This document shows, piece by piece, positions 4,460 to 11,560 of a stretch of DNA of 35,239 bases; positions within the stretch are counted from its first letter, which is position 1; each line of letters starts with the position of its first letter. The position numbers and the translations under genes are program-made. Origin of the DNA: Nanobdellota archaeon (GTDB lineage: Archaea; Nanobdellota; Nanobdellia; Pacearchaeales; GW2011-AR1); assembly GCA_030647095.1 (NCBI GenBank), contig JAUSKH010000049.1:1-35239 (forward strand), written 5' to 3'. The notes beneath the pieces are model-generated. The model did not search any database and was not told the origin of the DNA. It saw only the letters and a list, made by a program, of their open reading frames with translations.

Positions 4460-4684
4460 TTATTTCTTAAGCGGCTCTCTAATAACTATTCTGTCTTTTT
4501 TAACTAAAGTCTCTATTTCTAATTCTGCATCTTCTAATTCTTTATAACCCTGTCTAATTAGTTCCGTACCTTCCTTAAATTTATTCATAGACTCTTTTAA
4601 GGGTATATTCCCAGATTCCAGACCATTAACAATTTTTTTGAGCCTTTCTAAATTTCCTTCAAATGAATCTTCCTTTTTTACCAT
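4460..4684 (-). CDS. xseB: Exodeoxyribonuclease VII small subunit
   Basis: XseB is the small helical subunit that assembles in several copies on XseA to form exonuclease VII, which degrades single-stranded DNA to oligonucleotides. The 74 residues match the family length. The signature FEGNLERLKKIVNGLESGNIPL and a following LKEGMxxYxxG-like region (MNKFKEGTELIRQGYKEL) are clear. The gene starts 1 bp after the xseA stop, so the two are co-transcribed with the large subunit first. This is mainly a bacterial system. Its presence in a DPANN-like genome suggests an old transfer. Confidence 0.92.
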   Translation of the reverse strand: MVKKEDSFEGNLERLKKIVNGLESGNIPLKESMNKFKEGTELIRQGYKELEDAELEIETLVKKDRIVIREPLKK

Positions 4685-4685
4685 A

Positions 4686-5960
4686 TTATCTTTTTATTTT
4701 CTTAACTTCAGCTTCTAACTCTCCTTTATAGAATATTACATTTATATTATTATGTATTTTTACTTCGGTTGCACTTTTTATTATCCTATTTCCTTTCATT
4801 ACAATGCTATAACCTCTTTCAAGTATCGCATTAGGATTCAATGCAGATAATTTAGAGTCTAAAATTTCCAAACTTTTTCTTTTTAGACTCATACATTGAG
4901 ATATTTTTGTTTGAAGCATATATTCAAAACTGTCAATATTTTGATAATATGCGTGTATTGCTTCAAATGGATTTTTAAAAATAGGCCTGTTTGAAATTTC
5001 TTCTAGGCGAGATTTATTAATTTTTATTATATGACCTACAGCATTTAATATTCTTTCATTAAAATTATTTATTAATTTTTTCAGTTCGTTAATATCTGGC
5101 ACTGCTTTTTCAGCAGCAGCTGAGGGTGTTGGAGCCCTATAATCTGCAACAAAATCTGCTATTGTAAAATCTGTTTCATGACCTATTGCAGAAATTATTG
5201 GTATTTTAGATTGAAAAATTGCTCTTGCAACACTTTCTTCATTAAAGCACCATAAATCCTCTAATGAACCACCACCTCTTGCTAAAATAATTACATCCAC
5301 ATCATAATCCTCTTGATTTATTAATTCAATAGCGTTTACAATGGAGTTTGATGCTTCTTTTCCCTGAACAGGTGTAGGAACAATCAATAGTTTTACAAGA
5401 GGATATCTTCTTTTTAAAACATTTAAAACATCATGCATAACTGCCCCATTTAATGAAGTAATTAATCCAATTGTTTTTGGAAACTGGGGTAATTGTTTTT
5501 TATGCTCATTTAAGAATAATCCTTGTTTTTCTAATTTATTTTTTAATTGAATAAAAGCAAGATTTAATGACCCAATACCGTCTGGTTGTATTTCTTCAAT
5601 AATTAGGCTATATTTTCCATAAGGCTCATAAACATCTATGCCTCCTCTAACGATAACTTTCATTCCATGTTCTAACTTAAAATTTATATTTTCACAATTC
5701 TTTTTAAACAAAACGCAATTAATCTGACTTTGTTCATCTTTTAAAGTAAAATATATATGGCCTGAAGAATATAGTTTTGGAGAAGATATTTCTCCCCGCA
5801 AATAAAAATCTCCCAGTTTTTTATCCCCCTTTAATCTATTTTTTATATACCTAGTAATCTCAGAAACACTAAATATCCTTTTGTCTAGTAAATTTGAAGT
5901 TATAACCTGAGCATTAGATAAAAGATTTTTTTGTTTTTTACCAAATAGACCAAATGCCAT
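4686..5960 (-). CDS. xseA: Exodeoxyribonuclease VII large subunit
   Basis: XseA is the catalytic subunit of exonuclease VII. The 424-residue protein has an N-terminal OB-fold (about residues 30-130, including FYLRGEISSPK and HIYFTLKDE). The catalytic core follows with LITSLNGAVMHDVLNVL, RGGGSLEDLW (about 226-235) and GHETDFTIADFVADYRAPTP (259 onwards, with the conserved GHETD). A coiled-coil region comes next, and the tail RGYSIVMKGNRII...GELEAEV is typical. All family hallmarks are present, so it is probably active. A minus-strand TATA-like element (GATATAAAAG, about 5981-5990) lies roughly 25 bp upstream of the ATG, suggesting a leaderless xseA-xseB mRNA. A short reading frame at 6157-6219 repeats the ELEAEV tail. 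Confidence 0.95.
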   Translation of the reverse strand: MAFGLFGKKQKNLLSNAQVITSNLLDKRIFSVSEITRYIKNRLKGDKKLGDFYLRGEISSPKLYSSGHIYFTLKDEQSQINCVLFKKNCENINFKLEHGMKVIVRGGIDVYEPYGKYSLIIEEIQPDGIGSLNLAFIQLKNKLEKQGLFLNEHKKQLPQFPKTIGLITSLNGAVMHDVLNVLKRRYPLVKLLIVPTPVQGKEASNSIVNAIELINQEDYDVDVIILARGGGSLEDLWCFNEESVARAIFQSKIPIISAIGHETDFTIADFVADYRAPTPSAAAEKAVPDINELKKLINNFNERILNAVGHIIKINKSRLEEISNRPIFKNPFEAIHAYYQNIDSFEYMLQTKISQCMSLKRKSLEILDSKLSALNPNAILERGYSIVMKGNRIIKSATEVKIHNNINVIFYKGELEAEVKKIKR

Positions 5961-6259: not shown

Positions 6260-6315
6260 ACTATACGATACCATCGTATAGTAATGGCATAAACTATACT
6301 ATACCATCGTAAAGC
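6260..6315. promoter_or_regulatory. Two related palindromic boxes upstream of ATPase gene
   Basis: Box 1 (6260-6282) is a perfect inverted repeat: ACTATACGAT, 3-nt ACC, ATCGTATAGT. Box 2 (6293-6315) repeats the same sequence with a few changes (ACTATACTAT ACC ATCGTAAAGC), 33 bp downstream. An AT-rich CTATACTATA within box 2 could be the TATA element for the gene at 6344. The arrangement looks like a pair of operator sites, one strong and one degenerate. Confidence 0.45.
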
Positions 6316-6343: not shown

Positions 6344-7501
6344 ATGGAAATAGAAGCAGAGCTGTATAGGCAGAATCCTTGGTGGGAGAATAAATTCAAA
6401 GAAACGAGTTATCCTAGAGAGAAATATACTTCACAAATTTTAAAAAATTTAAAAACGAAGGAAATAATTCTCATAACTGGACTTAGAAGGATAGGCAAGA
6501 CAACTTTGATTATGCAGACTATTAAGCGTTTAATTGAAAATAAAATCAAGCCAGAAGATATTTTTTTTATCAGGATAGACTCTTTTAATCTCCTAGAGTT
6601 TAGCATCCATCAGCTTATAGAAGAGTATAGAAGAATCCACAAGAAAGCTTCTTCCGACTTCTTTTATTTATTTTTAGATGAAGTCTCGACAAGAGATAAT
6701 TTTGAACAGGAACTAAAAAGCATTTATGATAATGAAAATATCAAAGCCATTTGTTCCTCTTCTATTGCTACTTTGATGAGGGATAAGAAAGCCAGTTTGA
6801 CAGGAAGGACAAAAACTATTGAAGTGATGCCCTTGGACTTTCAGGAATTTTTAGAATTCAAAGAAGCAAAAATATCAAAGTCAGATTCTGCAAAACTGGA
6901 AAGCTATTTCAGAGATTATTTAAAAATTGGAGGTGTTCCATATTATGTTCTTACAGAAGATAAGTCTTACTTAAATGAACTGGTCGAAAGCATTATTTAC
7001 AAGGATATAATTGCATATCATAAAATAACTGCTGAAAAAACAATTAAGGAACTCTTTGTTCTTTTATGCCAAAGAGTTGGAAAACCTATGAGTTATAATA
7101 AAATTGCGGAAATCTTAAAGATTTCGGTAGATAGTGCAAAAAGATATGTTGGCTATTTTGAAAAAGCGTATTTATTTTATGTCGTTGACAGATACTCTAA
7201 ATCTCTCAATGAAAGAATAACTTCCCCCAAAAAGATTTATATTGGAGATGTGGGGATTAAAAATTGTATTACAGGATTTAAGGATTTAGGCGCAAGCTAT
7301 GAGAATTTAGTTTTTTTAAAAATCAAAGATAAAAATCCAGAATATTATCTTGAAAATTCGTCTGAAATAGACTTTATAACAAAAGATGAGCTAATTGAAG
7401 CGAAGTACAACAGTGGATTAGATGAGAAACAGAAAAAAGCATTTAAGTCTGTAAATATAAAAAATAAGATTATAGTTAATGGCTACTCTTTTTTTGTCTA
7501 A
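6344..7501 (+). CDS. AAA+ ATPase with DUF4143-type C-terminus
   Basis: The 385-residue protein is of the AAA_14/DUF4143 type common as mobile accessory genes in archaea. Walker A is GLRRIGKTT (residues 46-54) and Walker B is YLFLDEVS (around 107-114). A SSSIATLM sensor region, LTGRTKTIEVMPLDFQEFL and a helical MSYNKIAEILKISVDSAKRYV winged-helix-like segment follow. The C-terminal EIDFITKDELIEAKYN resembles the degenerate PD-(D/E)XK-like fold typical of this group. Biological role is not established for the family; roles in defence or mobile DNA have been suggested. The N-terminal MEIEAELYRQNPWWE is usual. It stands alone behind a palindromic promoter region in the accessory island. Confidence 0.85.
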   Translation: MEIEAELYRQNPWWENKFKETSYPREKYTSQILKNLKTKEIILITGLRRIGKTTLIMQTIKRLIENKIKPEDIFFIRIDSFNLLEFSIHQLIEEYRRIHKKASSDFFYLFLDEVSTRDNFEQELKSIYDNENIKAICSSSIATLMRDKKASLTGRTKTIEVMPLDFQEFLEFKEAKISKSDSAKLESYFRDYLKIGGVPYYVLTEDKSYLNELVESIIYKDIIAYHKITAEKTIKELFVLLCQRVGKPMSYNKIAEILKISVDSAKRYVGYFEKAYLFYVVDRYSKSLNERITSPKKIYIGDVGIKNCITGFKDLGASYENLVFLKIKDKNPEYYLENSSEIDFITKDELIEAKYNSGLDEKQKKAFKSVNIKNKIIVNGYSFFV

Positions 7502-7599: not shown

Positions 7600-8367
7600 C
7601 TATTTTAGAACGTATTTTCCTTTACCTTTAAACTGCAGGAGATTTTTATCTCTAAGAATCTGGAGCTGTTGCCTAATTTTATCCTTAACGTGGAAGTTAT
7701 TAGGATGTAACATTGCCAATGCTTTTTCATATTGGTAGATGTCTTGTAATGTAAAATCTTTTTTCTTGAGCTGATGGATAACGTTAAGGATATCAATTGT
7801 CCAGCTTCTTTCTATTAGAGGGGATTTTTTAATGAATTCTATCTTATGCCATTTTTCTTCTACAATTTTCCTTTGTAATATATTTCCATCTTGAATAATT
7901 GGGATTCTTCCTTCAGGAGGGATTTTTTCAAGTAGGACATTACAACCTATCCAACCAGCCCTCTTAGCTGATTCTGCAAGTGGTTTTCTCTTTTCTATAA
8001 CTTCAGGAGTGAAGAAGAAAGAGGGTACTAGGAAGAGGTTTTTCACGTAATAATCTACGGTATATTGTAAAAAGAAGAAGTTGGGTCTCATGTTTTGATG
8101 GATGGATTTTATCATTACTCCATAAGCACCATCGTTAATTTTCCTTCCAAAATTGGGTAGCTGGCTCTTTAACTGGAATTGTTCTTTACATTGAGAACAG
8201 GAAAAATCTGCGACAGGATTATTGTTTGCGAAAGGGGTTAGTTGTGAGTGGAGGCAATGTGGACAGAACATCTGTGAAGCCATCCATTGCTCAGTGAGAA
8301 CTCGTATTCTCTGGGAGTTGCTTTTGTACTTTACAAGCACGATAGGATTTGCTAGAGAGAGGTTCAT
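7600..8367 (-). CDS. DpnI-like methyl-directed restriction endonuclease
   Basis: DpnI of Streptococcus cuts GATC only when the adenine is N6-methylated. The 255-residue length and nearly all landmark segments of DpnI recur here: YKSNSQ, NDGAYG, PNFFFLQYT, RKPLAESAKRAGWIGCN, WTIDILN, FTLQDIYQYE and KIRQQLQILRDK. A zinc ribbon is formed by C35, C38, C57 and C60. The PD-(D/E)XK site reads VAD54F, then Q65-L-K67, so the catalytic Glu of DpnI is Gln here; D-QXK variants are known to be active in other nuclease families. The C-terminal winged helix that reads the methylated site is intact. No Dam-type methylase is adjacent, as expected for this enzyme class. The minus-strand start has a TTTAAATATA box about 25 bp upstream. 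Confidence 0.9.
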   Translation of the reverse strand: MNLSLANPIVLVKYKSNSQRIRVLTEQWMASQMFCPHCLHSQLTPFANNNPVADFSCSQCKEQFQLKSQLPNFGRKINDGAYGVMIKSIHQNMRPNFFFLQYTVDYYVKNLFLVPSFFFTPEVIEKRKPLAESAKRAGWIGCNVLLEKIPPEGRIPIIQDGNILQRKIVEEKWHKIEFIKKSPLIERSWTIDILNVIHQLKKKDFTLQDIYQYEKALAMLHPNNFHVKDKIRQQLQILRDKNLLQFKGKGKYVLK

Positions 8368-8427
8368 GGCAGAATATTATATTTAAATTACGGATCTATT
8401 TAAATACTGCCAAGATCAAATAAAAAT
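8368..8427. promoter_or_regulatory. Divergent promoter of dpnI-like gene, with two GATC sites
   Basis: The 60-bp gap carries two TATA-like boxes: minus-strand AATTTAAATATA about 25 bp upstream of the endonuclease ATG, and plus-strand CTATTTAAATAC (8397-8408) about 26 bp upstream of the ATG at 8428. GATC, the DpnI recognition core, occurs at 8393-8396 and 8413-8416, on either side of the plus-strand box. Confidence 0.5.
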
Positions 8428-8706
8428 ATGAAGATTACTCAGACCACAATTCAGAAAACTTTCTACGTGCAAATTAAAGATAAGACTTATTATGTTGATT
8501 TTGTTAATTCAGATGACCACAATTTGAGTTTATTAAATAGAAATAACTGGGAAATATACGATGAGAGTCATGAAGAGTTAGACCTATATACGTATGATAA
8601 TACAAATAAGAAAAGAGCCAGAGAAATAAAAAAGAACTGGCAGCTTGCTAAAAAGCTGATAAACTTTTGTATAAAACATTTCAATGATTATGAACCCTTG
8701 AAGTAA
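8428..8706 (+). CDS. Hypothetical protein, 92 residues
   Basis: I do not recognise this family. The protein is rich in Asp, Asn, Lys and aromatic residues. It begins with a short beta-rich stretch (TFYVQIKDKTYYVDFVNSDD) and ends in a helical, basic part (KKRAREIKKNWQLAKKLINFCIKHF). There is no membrane segment or signal peptide. A TATA-like box lies 26 bp before the ATG. It is divergent from the DpnI-like endonuclease with a 60-bp shared promoter, so it may be a partner or controller, as small accessory genes accompany dpnI in streptococci (DpnD), but there is no visible similarity to argue for that. Confidence 0.55.
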   Translation: MKITQTTIQKTFYVQIKDKTYYVDFVNSDDHNLSLLNRNNWEIYDESHEELDLYTYDNTNKKRAREIKKNWQLAKKLINFCIKHFNDYEPLK

Positions 8707-9965: not shown

Positions 9966-10277
9966 ATGGCAAAGACAATAACAACCCGCTTACCTGACGA
10001 ATATGTAATCGGAATAGGAAAAATAGCAAAGATAGAGAAGTTAGATACATCAGGAGTAATTAGAAAGCTTTTAGCGAAAGCTATAGGGGAATGGAAAAAG
10101 GATTATGCTATTGATATGTATAAAAGAGGAGAATTCTCATTTGGGCAAGCCGCAAAGGCTGCAGAGATAAGTATGTGGGATTTTCCAAACTTATTAAAAG
10201 AAAAGAAAGTCGCGCTAAATCTCGATGTAGAAGAATTAGAATCCGAGTTAGAAACAATAAAATGGAAAAGGAAGTAG
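9966..10277 (+). CDS. UPF0175-family antitoxin
   Basis: The 103-residue protein has an N-terminal ribbon-helix-helix-like DNA-binding stretch (TITTRLPDEYVIGIGKIAKIEKLDTSGVIRKLLAKAI). The UPF0175 hallmark follows: MYKRGEFSFGQAAKAAEISMWDFPNLLKEKKV. Members are antitoxins paired with DUF3368 PIN-like toxins, which is exactly the next gene here, overlapping by 16 nt. It probably binds the palindrome in its own promoter and neutralises the toxin (known for similar modules; inferred here). The promoter spacing indicates a leaderless mRNA. Confidence 0.88.
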   Translation: MAKTITTRLPDEYVIGIGKIAKIEKLDTSGVIRKLLAKAIGEWKKDYAIDMYKRGEFSFGQAAKAAEISMWDFPNLLKEKKVALNLDVEELESELETIKWKRK

Positions 10278-10747
10278 TATCTAACTCTAGCTCAATAATC
10301 TTTCTAGCAAAGTTAAATATTTTTGATTTAGCAAGAAACGTTTTTTCCAGAATAATTGTGCCAAAAGCAGTAACTAAAGAATTATTCGAAAAAGACTCAC
10401 CGGAAAATGAAATAGTTAAAAGAGAATTGAATAATTTTCTGAAGGAAAGCGAAGTAAAAAATATTAAAGACTTTCCACTCGACGAAGGAGAAAAAGCAGC
10501 TATTTCGCTATGCTTAGAAAAAAATGTAGGAATTTTCTTGTCTGATGATAAGAAAGCAAGAAGATATGCTAAATCCCTAGGAATAAAAGTAATAGGGATA
10601 CTAGGGATTTTACTAGATAACATACAAGAAAAAAAGATAGATAAAAAAGAATTTCTAAGGTTATTGAATAAATTGATAGAAAAGGGTTATTATATTTCCC
10701 CCGCATTATATGCAGAAGTAATGAAGAAGATAGAAGAGTTGCAGTAG
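10262..10747 (+). CDS. DUF3368 PIN-like toxin
   Basis: This is a PIN-fold ribonuclease-type toxin of about 161 residues. The hallmark start VVSNSSSIIFLAKLNIFDLA, the FSRIIVPKAVTKELF segment with a conserved acidic residue, DEGEKAAISLCLEKN (second acidic cluster) and IFLSDDKKARRYAKSLGIKVIG (third acidic cluster, DD) match DUF3368. The reading frame is open further upstream to 10175, but the ATG at 10262, inside the antitoxin gene, gives the family-typical N-terminus. The tail continues with a helical MKKIEELQ. All expected acidic residues are present, so the toxin should be active. Confidence 0.87.
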   Translation: MEKEVVSNSSSIIFLAKLNIFDLARNVFSRIIVPKAVTKELFEKDSPENEIVKRELNNFLKESEVKNIKDFPLDEGEKAAISLCLEKNVGIFLSDDKKARRYAKSLGIKVIGILGILLDNIQEKKIDKKEFLRLLNKLIEKGYYISPALYAEVMKKIEELQ

Positions 10748-10777
10748 GAGCATAACTTGCTTTATAGTGGCAAGCTC
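10748..10777 (+). terminator. Weak hairpin after toxin gene
   Basis: CTTGC (10756-10760) and GCAAG (10770-10774) can pair, and GAGC (10748-10751) and GCTC (10774-10777) flank them. A pyrimidine-rich CTCTTC follows. It could mark the transcript end, but the stem is short. Confidence 0.25.
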
Positions 10778-10880
10778 TTCATCAATAAGCGTCCTTAAAT
10801 CAGATATTACTACTTCTGTAGTTTACTCTTTGTCATACTTAAATCATCTAACTCTACTTCATAAAAAATAGTAAGGAAAA

Positions 10881-10910
10881 CTTTAAATAGTACTTATGAC
10901 CTTAAGTACT
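10881..10910 (+). promoter_or_regulatory. TATA box and 8-bp palindromic operator for RHH/PIN module
   Basis: CTTTAAATA (10881-10889) lies about 27 bp before the ATG at 10912. Between them is a perfect inverted repeat AGTACTTA-TGACCT-TAAGTACT (10889-10910), which ends 1 bp before the start codon. It covers the predicted transcription start of a leaderless mRNA and is a strong candidate for the antitoxin binding site. Confidence 0.6.
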
Positions 10911-10911
10911 T

Positions 10912-11175
10912 ATGGGAGAAATGAAAATAAAGATTAATGATGGTTTGGAACAGGTTTTCAGAAAGGTTGCTATGCGTAGATTTGGATATCATCGGGGCTC
11001 AATGAGCAAAGCAGCTCAGGAAGCATTTGAACAATGGACTTCTATACAAGATGTACCCGATCATAAAGAAGACCCGGTAGAGATGATTTCTGGATTAATG
11101 AAACATGTGAAAAAGAATTCAGTAGAATTACAGCATGAGGCTTGGGAAAGGGTTGGTAGAAAGCATGCTCATTGA
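10912..11175 (+). CDS. VapB-like antitoxin (ribbon-helix-helix type)
   Basis: The 87-residue protein begins with a beta strand (EMKIKINDGLEQVFRKVAMRRFG) and a GSMSKAAQEAFEQW helix, a pattern seen in archaeal RHH-type VapB antitoxins. The C-terminal part (DPVEMISGLMKHVKKNSVELQHEAW) is predicted helical and would wrap the toxin. The next gene, a PIN protein, overlaps by 11 nt. A second ATG four codons in could be the start, but the ATG at 10912 fits the TATA spacing. Confidence 0.8.
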   Translation: MGEMKIKINDGLEQVFRKVAMRRFGYHRGSMSKAAQEAFEQWTSIQDVPDHKEDPVEMISGLMKHVKKNSVELQHEAWERVGRKHAH

Positions 11176-11560
11176 TGCAAATATCTTCCTAGAAGTTCTT
11201 CTAGAACAACAAAGCAGTGGTAGATGCAAGGCTTTTCTAAATTTGTTAAAAACGGGAGAACAAAAAGCAATTCTGACAACATTTTCTATTGACTCAATAA
11301 TATTATCTATGTATAGAGAAAGAGTAAAAGAAGAAAAAATAAAGATATTCTTACGTAGCTTATCACAGTATAAAGGTTTGAAAATATATTCTATAAGTTT
11401 ACGTGATAGATTTGAAGCTTTAGACCAAATTAAAAGATATAATTTAGATTATGAAGATGCAATAACATTACAGGCAGCAATTTCAACAAAATGCTCATCT
11501 ATTCTTAGTTTTGATAGGCATTTTGATAGGGTAAAAGAACTAAAAAGAGAAGAACCTTAA
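11165..11560 (+). CDS. PIN-domain toxin (VapC-like)
   Basis: The protein has about 131 residues. PIN landmarks are MLIDANIFLEVLL (Asp4 and Glu10), a central TFSIDSIILSMYRERV, the LDYEDAITLQAA motif with ED, and ILSFDRHFDRV at the C-terminus. VapC proteins are Mg-dependent ribonucleases that cut tRNA or rRNA. The open frame extends ten codons upstream to 11135, but the ATG at 11165 gives the canonical MLIDAN start and overlaps the antitoxin gene by 11 nt. All catalytic acidic positions are present. Confidence 0.88.
   Translation: MLIDANIFLEVLLEQQSSGRCKAFLNLLKTGEQKAILTTFSIDSIILSMYRERVKEEKIKIFLRSLSQYKGLKIYSISLRDRFEALDQIKRYNLDYEDAITLQAAISTKCSSILSFDRHFDRVKELKREEP

What the first reader, a model, noticed from the sequence alone, without database searches (positions are those of the whole stretch)
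7600..8367. DpnI-like methyl-directed restriction enzyme in an archaeal accessory island
The protein matches Streptococcus DpnI end to end, including the zinc ribbon, the RAGWIGCN segment and the methyl-reading winged helix. An enzyme that cuts only G-m6A-TC would protect a Dam-minus host against DNA from Dam-plus bacteria or their phages. For a small archaeon thought to live in contact with other cells this is a notable defence strategy. The catalytic Glu is Gln (D54...Q65-L-K67), so either a D-QXK active site is used or the enzyme only binds.
Basis: partly seen in the sequence, partly recalled or inferred. Interest (0 to 1): 0.76.

Follow-up and report, generated by a model that had tools for sequence, protein, structure and literature searches.

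The report
Archaeal DpnI-type methyl-directed restriction enzyme
A small archaeon carries a close relative of the bacterial enzyme DpnI, which cuts DNA only where the sequence GATC is methylated; all archaeal relatives found form one branch with a single altered but probably still working active-site residue, so this looks like a borrowed and inherited barrier against methylated foreign DNA.

Summary
Window 7600-8367 (-) encodes a 255-aa DpnI homologue over its whole length (PDB 4esj E=2e-81; PF06044 + PF17726; model Z 32.4, rmsd 1.6 A to DpnI). Every DNA- and methyl-contact residue checked in R.DpnI is identical here. The only active-site departure is catalytic Glu64 to Gln (D54...Q65-L-K67). 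This is a lineage trait: 10 of 10 archaeal homologues have Gln, the bacterial ones covering the site have Glu, and the archaeal set is one clade (100/99) with one E-to-Q change. Asp and Lys are invariant, and PD-QXK sites that bind metal through Gln are known (NhoI, Eco15I), so an active D-QXK enzyme is more likely than a dead binder. No GATC methyltransferase was detected in the host assembly (93% complete). In several bacterial and archaeal relatives the gene sits beside a damaged GATC methyltransferase; in one archaeon it lies inside a broken DpnII operon. Two archaeal relatives (G275, G288) have apparently intact DpnA-like methyltransferases, which remains unexplained. A 92-aa gene of unknown function is divergently paired with this and other restriction genes, and the shared promoters carry GATC sites. 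Activity is untested. New variant of a known kind.

The parts
7600..8367 (-). DpnI-family methyl-directed restriction endonuclease, 255 aa
   Evidence: model mean pLDDT 93.7; Z 32.4, rmsd 1.6 A, 240 residues to 4esj_B
7822..8367 (-). N-terminal catalytic domain with zinc ribbon (residues 1-182)
   Evidence: PF06044 E=3.4e-69; zinc-ribbon cysteines invariant in the alignment
8206..8208 (-). codon for catalytic Asp54 (DpnI D53)
   Evidence: invariant in all rows covering it
8173..8175 (-). codon CAG for Gln65 (DpnI Glu64), the variant catalytic residue
   Evidence: sequence; Gln in 10/10 archaeal homologues, Glu in bacterial ones
8167..8169 (-). codon for catalytic Lys67 (DpnI K66)
   Evidence: invariant in all rows covering it
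7939..7962 (-). RAGWIGCN segment: Arg136, Trp139, Gly141 of the m6A-binding cleft (DpnI R135, W138, G140)
   Evidence: residue map; roles from PMC4117772
7612..7812 (-). C-terminal winged-helix m6A reader; Lys230 and Arg232 = DpnI K229, R231
   Evidence: PF17726 E=2.4e-29
8368..8427 (.). divergent promoter region with two TATA-like boxes and two GATC sites (8393-8396, 8414-8417)
8428..8706 (+). 92-aa protein of unknown function, divergently paired with restriction genes in related archaea
   Evidence: no Pfam match
6344..7501 (+). AAA_14/DUF4143 ATPase, neighbour in the accessory island (PADLOC PDC-S01)

Best explanation
A DpnI-family methyl-directed (Type IIM) restriction enzyme. The winged helix and the catalytic domain both read Gm6ATC, and the PD-fold domain cuts within the site using Asp54, Gln65 and Lys67 with a divalent metal, Gln replacing the usual Glu ligand. 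It acts alone: the host leaves its own GATC unmethylated, so DNA from Dam-type or DpnII-type methylating organisms or elements is cut on entry. The gene moves between lineages, can displace GATC restriction-modification genes, and has been kept in one archaeal lineage since a single Glu-to-Gln change. Shown here: homology, fold, conserved contacts, the single E-to-Q clade, and no detected host GATC methyltransferase. Inferred: cleavage, specificity, defence role.
For: Homology over the full length and fold. All mapped R.DpnI contacts identical: S17, Q18, N48, N77, D78, R126, L129, R135, W138, G140, K229, R231 (roles from PMC4117772). Asp, Gln and Lys conserved in all archaeal homologues. Natural PD-QXK enzymes bind metal through Gln (PMC11347163) and are the next structural neighbours of the catalytic domain (Eco15I Z 9.6, NhoI Z 9.3). 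No PF01555 in G000; its D12 enzyme gives no phmmer match to six Dam proteins. Damaged GATC methyltransferases beside DpnI genes: G418, G758, N. gonorrhoeae, G1259, G1280; Dam with altered C-termini in G442 and G761, as reported for frameshifted cases in bacteria (PMC11037411). Family members with tested Gm6ATC specificity: Drg (PMC4269198) and FcyTI (PMC11037411).
Against: No activity data for any Gln-type member. G275 and G288 have apparently intact DpnA-like methyltransferases directly downstream, and those of G255 and G286 are complete except for an obvious start codon; if these make Gm6ATC, an active enzyme should be lethal. The host assembly is 93% complete, so a missed methyltransferase is possible.
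Confidence: 0.74

Rival explanations
1. Gln65 abolishes or strongly weakens cleavage, and the archaeal clade are m6A readers (regulators, or partners of a methyltransferase writer) rather than restriction enzymes.
For: Gln replaces a metal-binding Glu; G275 and G288 carry apparently intact DpnA-like methyltransferases next to the gene, which a dead reader would tolerate.
Against: Asp53 and Lys66 stay invariant in every archaeal homologue, unusual for a dead site; natural PD-QXK enzymes exist; in G1259 and G1280 the neighbouring methyltransferase is truncated, which a harmless reader would not require.
Confidence: 0.15
2. The archaeal enzymes have switched to cutting unmethylated GATC and form ordinary restriction-modification pairs with the DpnA-like methyltransferase.
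For: A methyltransferase lies directly downstream in G255, G275, G286 and G288; three of these four have Thr instead of Ile/Val next to the methyl-sensing Trp (position 139).
Against: The window genome, G017, G144 and G208 have no detected GATC methyltransferase (G144 is listed as 100% complete) and would destroy their own DNA; the window protein keeps Ile139 and the whole methyl cleft; G275, paired, also has Ile139; G1259 has Thr139 with a truncated methyltransferase.
Confidence: 0.05
3. A recently acquired or decaying gene that is not expressed and has no function in this host.
For: Patchy distribution: about 2% of genomes in the phylum sample, absent from the nine other same-genus genomes.
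Against: Intact ORF with every functional residue conserved; GC equal to the rest of the window; nearest relatives are archaeal, not bacterial; a paired promoter and partner gene recur in other genera.
Confidence: 0.06

Closest known systems
R.DpnI of Streptococcus pneumoniae (PDB 4esj, 4kyw)
   Same: Full-length homology (49% identity), zinc ribbon, all Gm6ATC contact residues, winged helix, fold
   Different: Gln for catalytic Glu64; archaeal host; no DpnD-like gene found beside it; a divergent 92-aa gene instead
Drg (dam replacing gene product) of Neisseria and FcyTI of Flavobacterium
   Same: DpnI family, Gm6ATC-specific by experiment (PMC4269198, PMC11037411); drg lies next to a damaged DpnA-type methyltransferase
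   Different: Drg keeps Glu64 but has His at the methyl-sensing Trp; both are bacterial (FcyTI sequence not examined here)
PD-QXK modification-dependent nucleases NhoI and Eco15I (BisI family)
   Same: PD fold with a Gln metal ligand in QXK (PMC11347163); structural match Z 9.3-9.6
   Different: Read m5C in GCNGC; only about 10% identity in the structural alignment; the DpnI-type winged helix was not part of the match
HHPV4I / HhiV4I, archaeal-virus m6A-dependent enzyme
   Same: Gm6ATC-dependent, winged-helix domain, archaeal setting (PMC10101028)
   Different: SRA-wH-HNH architecture, unrelated catalytic domain, haloarchaeal virus

Membership tests
DpnI family (PF06044 + PF17726) | Catalytic/zinc domain PF06044 over full length | tested here: met
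   E=3.4e-69, profile 1-182/183
DpnI family (PF06044 + PF17726) | C-terminal winged helix PF17726 | tested here: met
   E=2.4e-29, profile 2-68/70
DpnI family (PF06044 + PF17726) | Gm6ATC contact residues of R.DpnI | tested here: met
   12 of 12 mapped residues identical (roles from PMC4117772)
DpnI family (PF06044 + PF17726) | Overall fold | tested here: met
   4esj_B Z 32.4, rmsd 1.6 A over 240 residues
Canonical PD-(D/E)XK active site as in DpnI | Asp-(Asp/Glu)-X-Lys triad | tested here: not met
   D54 and K67 present, Gln65 in place of Glu; hence filed as a PD-QXK variant
PD-QXK variant site | Asp...Gln-X-Lys conserved across the lineage | tested here: met
   10 of 10 archaeal homologues
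Type IIM methyl-directed restriction enzyme | Cleaves Gm6ATC and not GATC | not testable with these tools
   needs purified protein
Type IIM methyl-directed restriction enzyme | Host lacks GATC m6A methyltransferase | tested here: inconclusive
   no PF01555; one D12 enzyme without detectable similarity to Dam; assembly 93% complete; other methyltransferase families not searched
Streptococcal DpnI-DpnD cassette | Adjacent DpnD/PcfM-like gene | tested here: not met
   phmmer with three DpnD-like queries: hits in six bacterial loci (plus the G1259 query itself), none in the window
Classical GATC restriction-modification system | Adjacent intact cognate methyltransferase | tested here: not met
   none in the window and no PF01555 in the assembly; present in some relatives

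The most novel reading that the evidence does not exclude
The 92-aa protein and the GATC sites in the divergent promoters it shares with DpnI, HsdR, an EVE/NucS-like protein and another putative nuclease form a regulatory switch for restriction genes in this archaeal lineage, so that adenine methylation at the promoter GATC reports on the cell's methylation state and turns the nuclease down. A methylation-sensitive promoter of this kind could also let a Gm6ATC cutter coexist with a GATC methyltransferase, as may be needed in G288.
Probability: 0.15. Interest if true: 0.75.

Novelty: new variant of a known kind. Interest (0 to 1): 0.5.

Why it matters
No paper found here describes DpnI-type enzymes in archaea of this lineage. 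A clade fixed for D-QXK in an otherwise unchanged DpnI scaffold is a natural experiment on whether Gln can replace the catalytic Glu. It also predicts unmethylated GATC in these hosts and a barrier to DNA from Dam-positive bacteria, and suggests that DpnI and GATC methyltransferase genes displace and break each other in archaea as in bacteria. The paired 92-aa gene with GATC-bearing promoters is a testable new lead on control of archaeal restriction genes.

Tried and rejected
(1) GATC depletion as evidence of self-targeting: GATC is among the most depleted 4-base palindromes across the whole group with or without DpnI (G000 0.53; six same-genus genomes without DpnI 0.18-0.46), so it is not diagnostic. 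(2) The weak PF06044 hits in G036 and G053 are zinc-ribbon matches, not DpnI; those in G200 and G233 are partial and below cut-off. (3) An early idea that Gln-type enzymes always coexist with intact methyltransferases was dropped after G1259 and G1280 showed truncated ones. (4) Thr139 as a marker of specificity switch: tracks pairing in part only (G275 has Ile and is paired; G1259 has Thr and a truncated partner). (5) Viral origin: viral contigs gave only winged-helix fragments, phages one fragment, no full-length homologue. (6) The 92-aa fold: predicted model moderate (pLDDT 79.5), no PDB match below E 0.4, which does not exclude a known fold. (7) Sigma-70 promoter scan gave chance numbers and does not fit archaea.

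Full report
Identity. The ORF at 7600-8367 (-) encodes 255 aa. The only PDB match is R.DpnI, E=2e-81, over nearly the whole length; both DpnI Pfam domains match far above cut-off and PADLOC names it a Type II methyl-directed enzyme. An AlphaFold2 model from an alignment of homologues (mean pLDDT 93.7) superposes on DpnI at Z 32.4, rmsd 1.6 A. The next matches covering the catalytic domain are Eco15I and NhoI, which are PD-QXK enzymes.

Residues. Using the roles given in PMC4117772, every R.DpnI residue checked that contacts the target or its methyl groups (S17, Q18, N48, N77, D78, R126, L129, R135, W138, G140) and the winged-helix K229 and R231 is identical in the window protein. The sole difference in the active site is Glu64 to Gln65. 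In PMC11347163 the authors state that the acidic residue is often replaced by Asn or Gln, equally suited to bind metal, with NhoI and Eco15I as solved cases.

Distribution and tree. Searches of relatives and of the phylum sample found homologues in about 2% of genomes: ten archaeal genomes in all, including the window's. All ten have Gln (QLK, or QGK in G288); all bacterial rows covering the site have Glu. The archaeal set is one clade with support 100/99 and needs one E-to-Q change. The nine other same-genus genomes examined lack the gene, so gain or loss is frequent.

Host methylation. The G000 assembly (93% complete) has no PF01555 methyltransferase. Its one PF02086 enzyme (contig C55, L041), followed by a gene whose C-terminal residues read as an HNH motif, gives no phmmer hit with six Dam proteins. 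Other methyltransferase families were not searched. This fits a host with unmethylated GATC but does not prove it.

Neighbouring methyltransferases. DpnA (M.DpnIIB)-like genes lie directly downstream of the archaeal DpnI gene in G255, G275, G286 and G288. The three full-length ones aligned (G255, G286, G288) are 42-56% identical to DpnA-type enzymes taken from complete DpnII-like operons on plasmids L093, L094 and L096 and lack the short insert seen in the CcrM-type row. That they methylate GATC is an inference. G275 (split over two contigs with overlapping ends) and G288 look intact; G255 and G286 lack an obvious start codon. In contrast, bacterial neighbours are damaged: internal deletion in G418, missing N-terminus in G758, an in-frame stop in the N. 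gonorrhoeae drg locus, altered Dam C-termini in G442 and G761; the DpnA-like gene of G442 itself has a full open frame. PMC11037411 reports frameshifted neighbours in two other bacteria. Two further archaeal loci agree: G1280 has a methyltransferase cut off before its DPFxGSG motif, and in G1259 the DpnI gene lies between a methyltransferase missing about its last 36 residues and a DpnII gene (PF04556 E=1.5e-90) missing its first 17. This is the archaeal parallel of the alternative DpnI/DpnII loci of pneumococcus (PMC3573125). The two apparently intact cases remain unexplained: different specificity, no expression, strain mixture in the assemblies, or regulation.

The divergent 92-aa gene. Window 8428-8706 (+) encodes a protein without Pfam match. 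Relatives are divergently paired with DpnI in G208 and G1280 (and, broken into pieces, in G144), with a Type I HsdR in G002, with an EVE-like/NucS_C protein in G317 (NucS_C below its cut-off, E=1.5e-4) and with an unassigned ORF that I read as a nuclease in G119; others lie in islands with genes that read as MNT/HEPN pairs. GATC occurs in the shared intergenic DNA of all six intact divergent loci. An automated count of 67 divergent gaps of 40-200 bp in the fetched archaeal loci found GATC in seven, three of them the DpnI/92-aa gaps of G000, G208 and G1280, so 4 of 64 others; the G002, G317 and G119 gaps were read by eye and were not in that automated set. The test was made after seeing the pattern, and G208 and G1280 are close relatives.

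Weighing. The most economical account is an active, solitary Gm6ATC-directed nuclease with a D-QXK site, inherited within this archaeal lineage. The dead-reader rival is weakened by invariant Asp and Lys and by the truncated methyltransferases of G1259 and G1280, and kept alive by G275 and G288. The switch to unmethylated GATC is disfavoured by the solitary members, above all G144 (listed as 100% complete; its full-length PF01555 enzyme has the TSPPY motif typical of m4C enzymes). Nothing here measures activity.

Noticed in passing
window 8428-8706 (+); L070 6798-7079, L108 5688-5969, L109 5617-5925, L110 6173-6445, L164 4742-5029: 92-aa protein family without Pfam match, divergently paired with several different restriction genes; elsewhere found as repeated or degraded copies in defence islands.
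   Followed up: partly
window 8393-8396 and 8414-8417; intergenic regions of L070, L164, L108, L110, L109: GATC sites, rare in these genomes, recur in the divergent promoters shared by the 92-aa gene and a restriction gene.
   Followed up: partly
L165 1904-4489: DpnI gene and a small ORF sitting between a C-terminally truncated DpnA-like methyltransferase and an N-terminally truncated DpnII gene in an archaeon.
   Followed up: yes
L072/L183 and L074: Apparently intact DpnA-like methyltransferases directly downstream of DpnI homologues in G275 and G288, a conflict not explained.
   Followed up: partly
window 4460-5960: Exonuclease VII genes xseA/xseB in an archaeon; among 10 relatives searched xseA was found only in G058, another family, at 79% identity, suggesting transfer.
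   Followed up: partly
window 6260-6314: Two copies of a 22-nt near-palindrome (first copy ACTATACGATACCATCGTATAG) 33 bp apart just upstream of the AAA_14/DUF4143 gene; possible operator.
   Followed up: no
window 9966-11560: Toxin-antitoxin-like pairs: UPF0175 with a DUF3368 PIN protein, and a second PIN protein with a small upstream gene.
   Followed up: no
L041 (G000 contig C55): D12-class methyltransferase followed by a gene with an HNH-like C-terminus; probably a separate restriction-modification system of unknown specificity.
   Followed up: partly
G000 and related genomes: GATC is among the most depleted 4-base palindromes across this archaeal group regardless of DpnI.
   Followed up: yes
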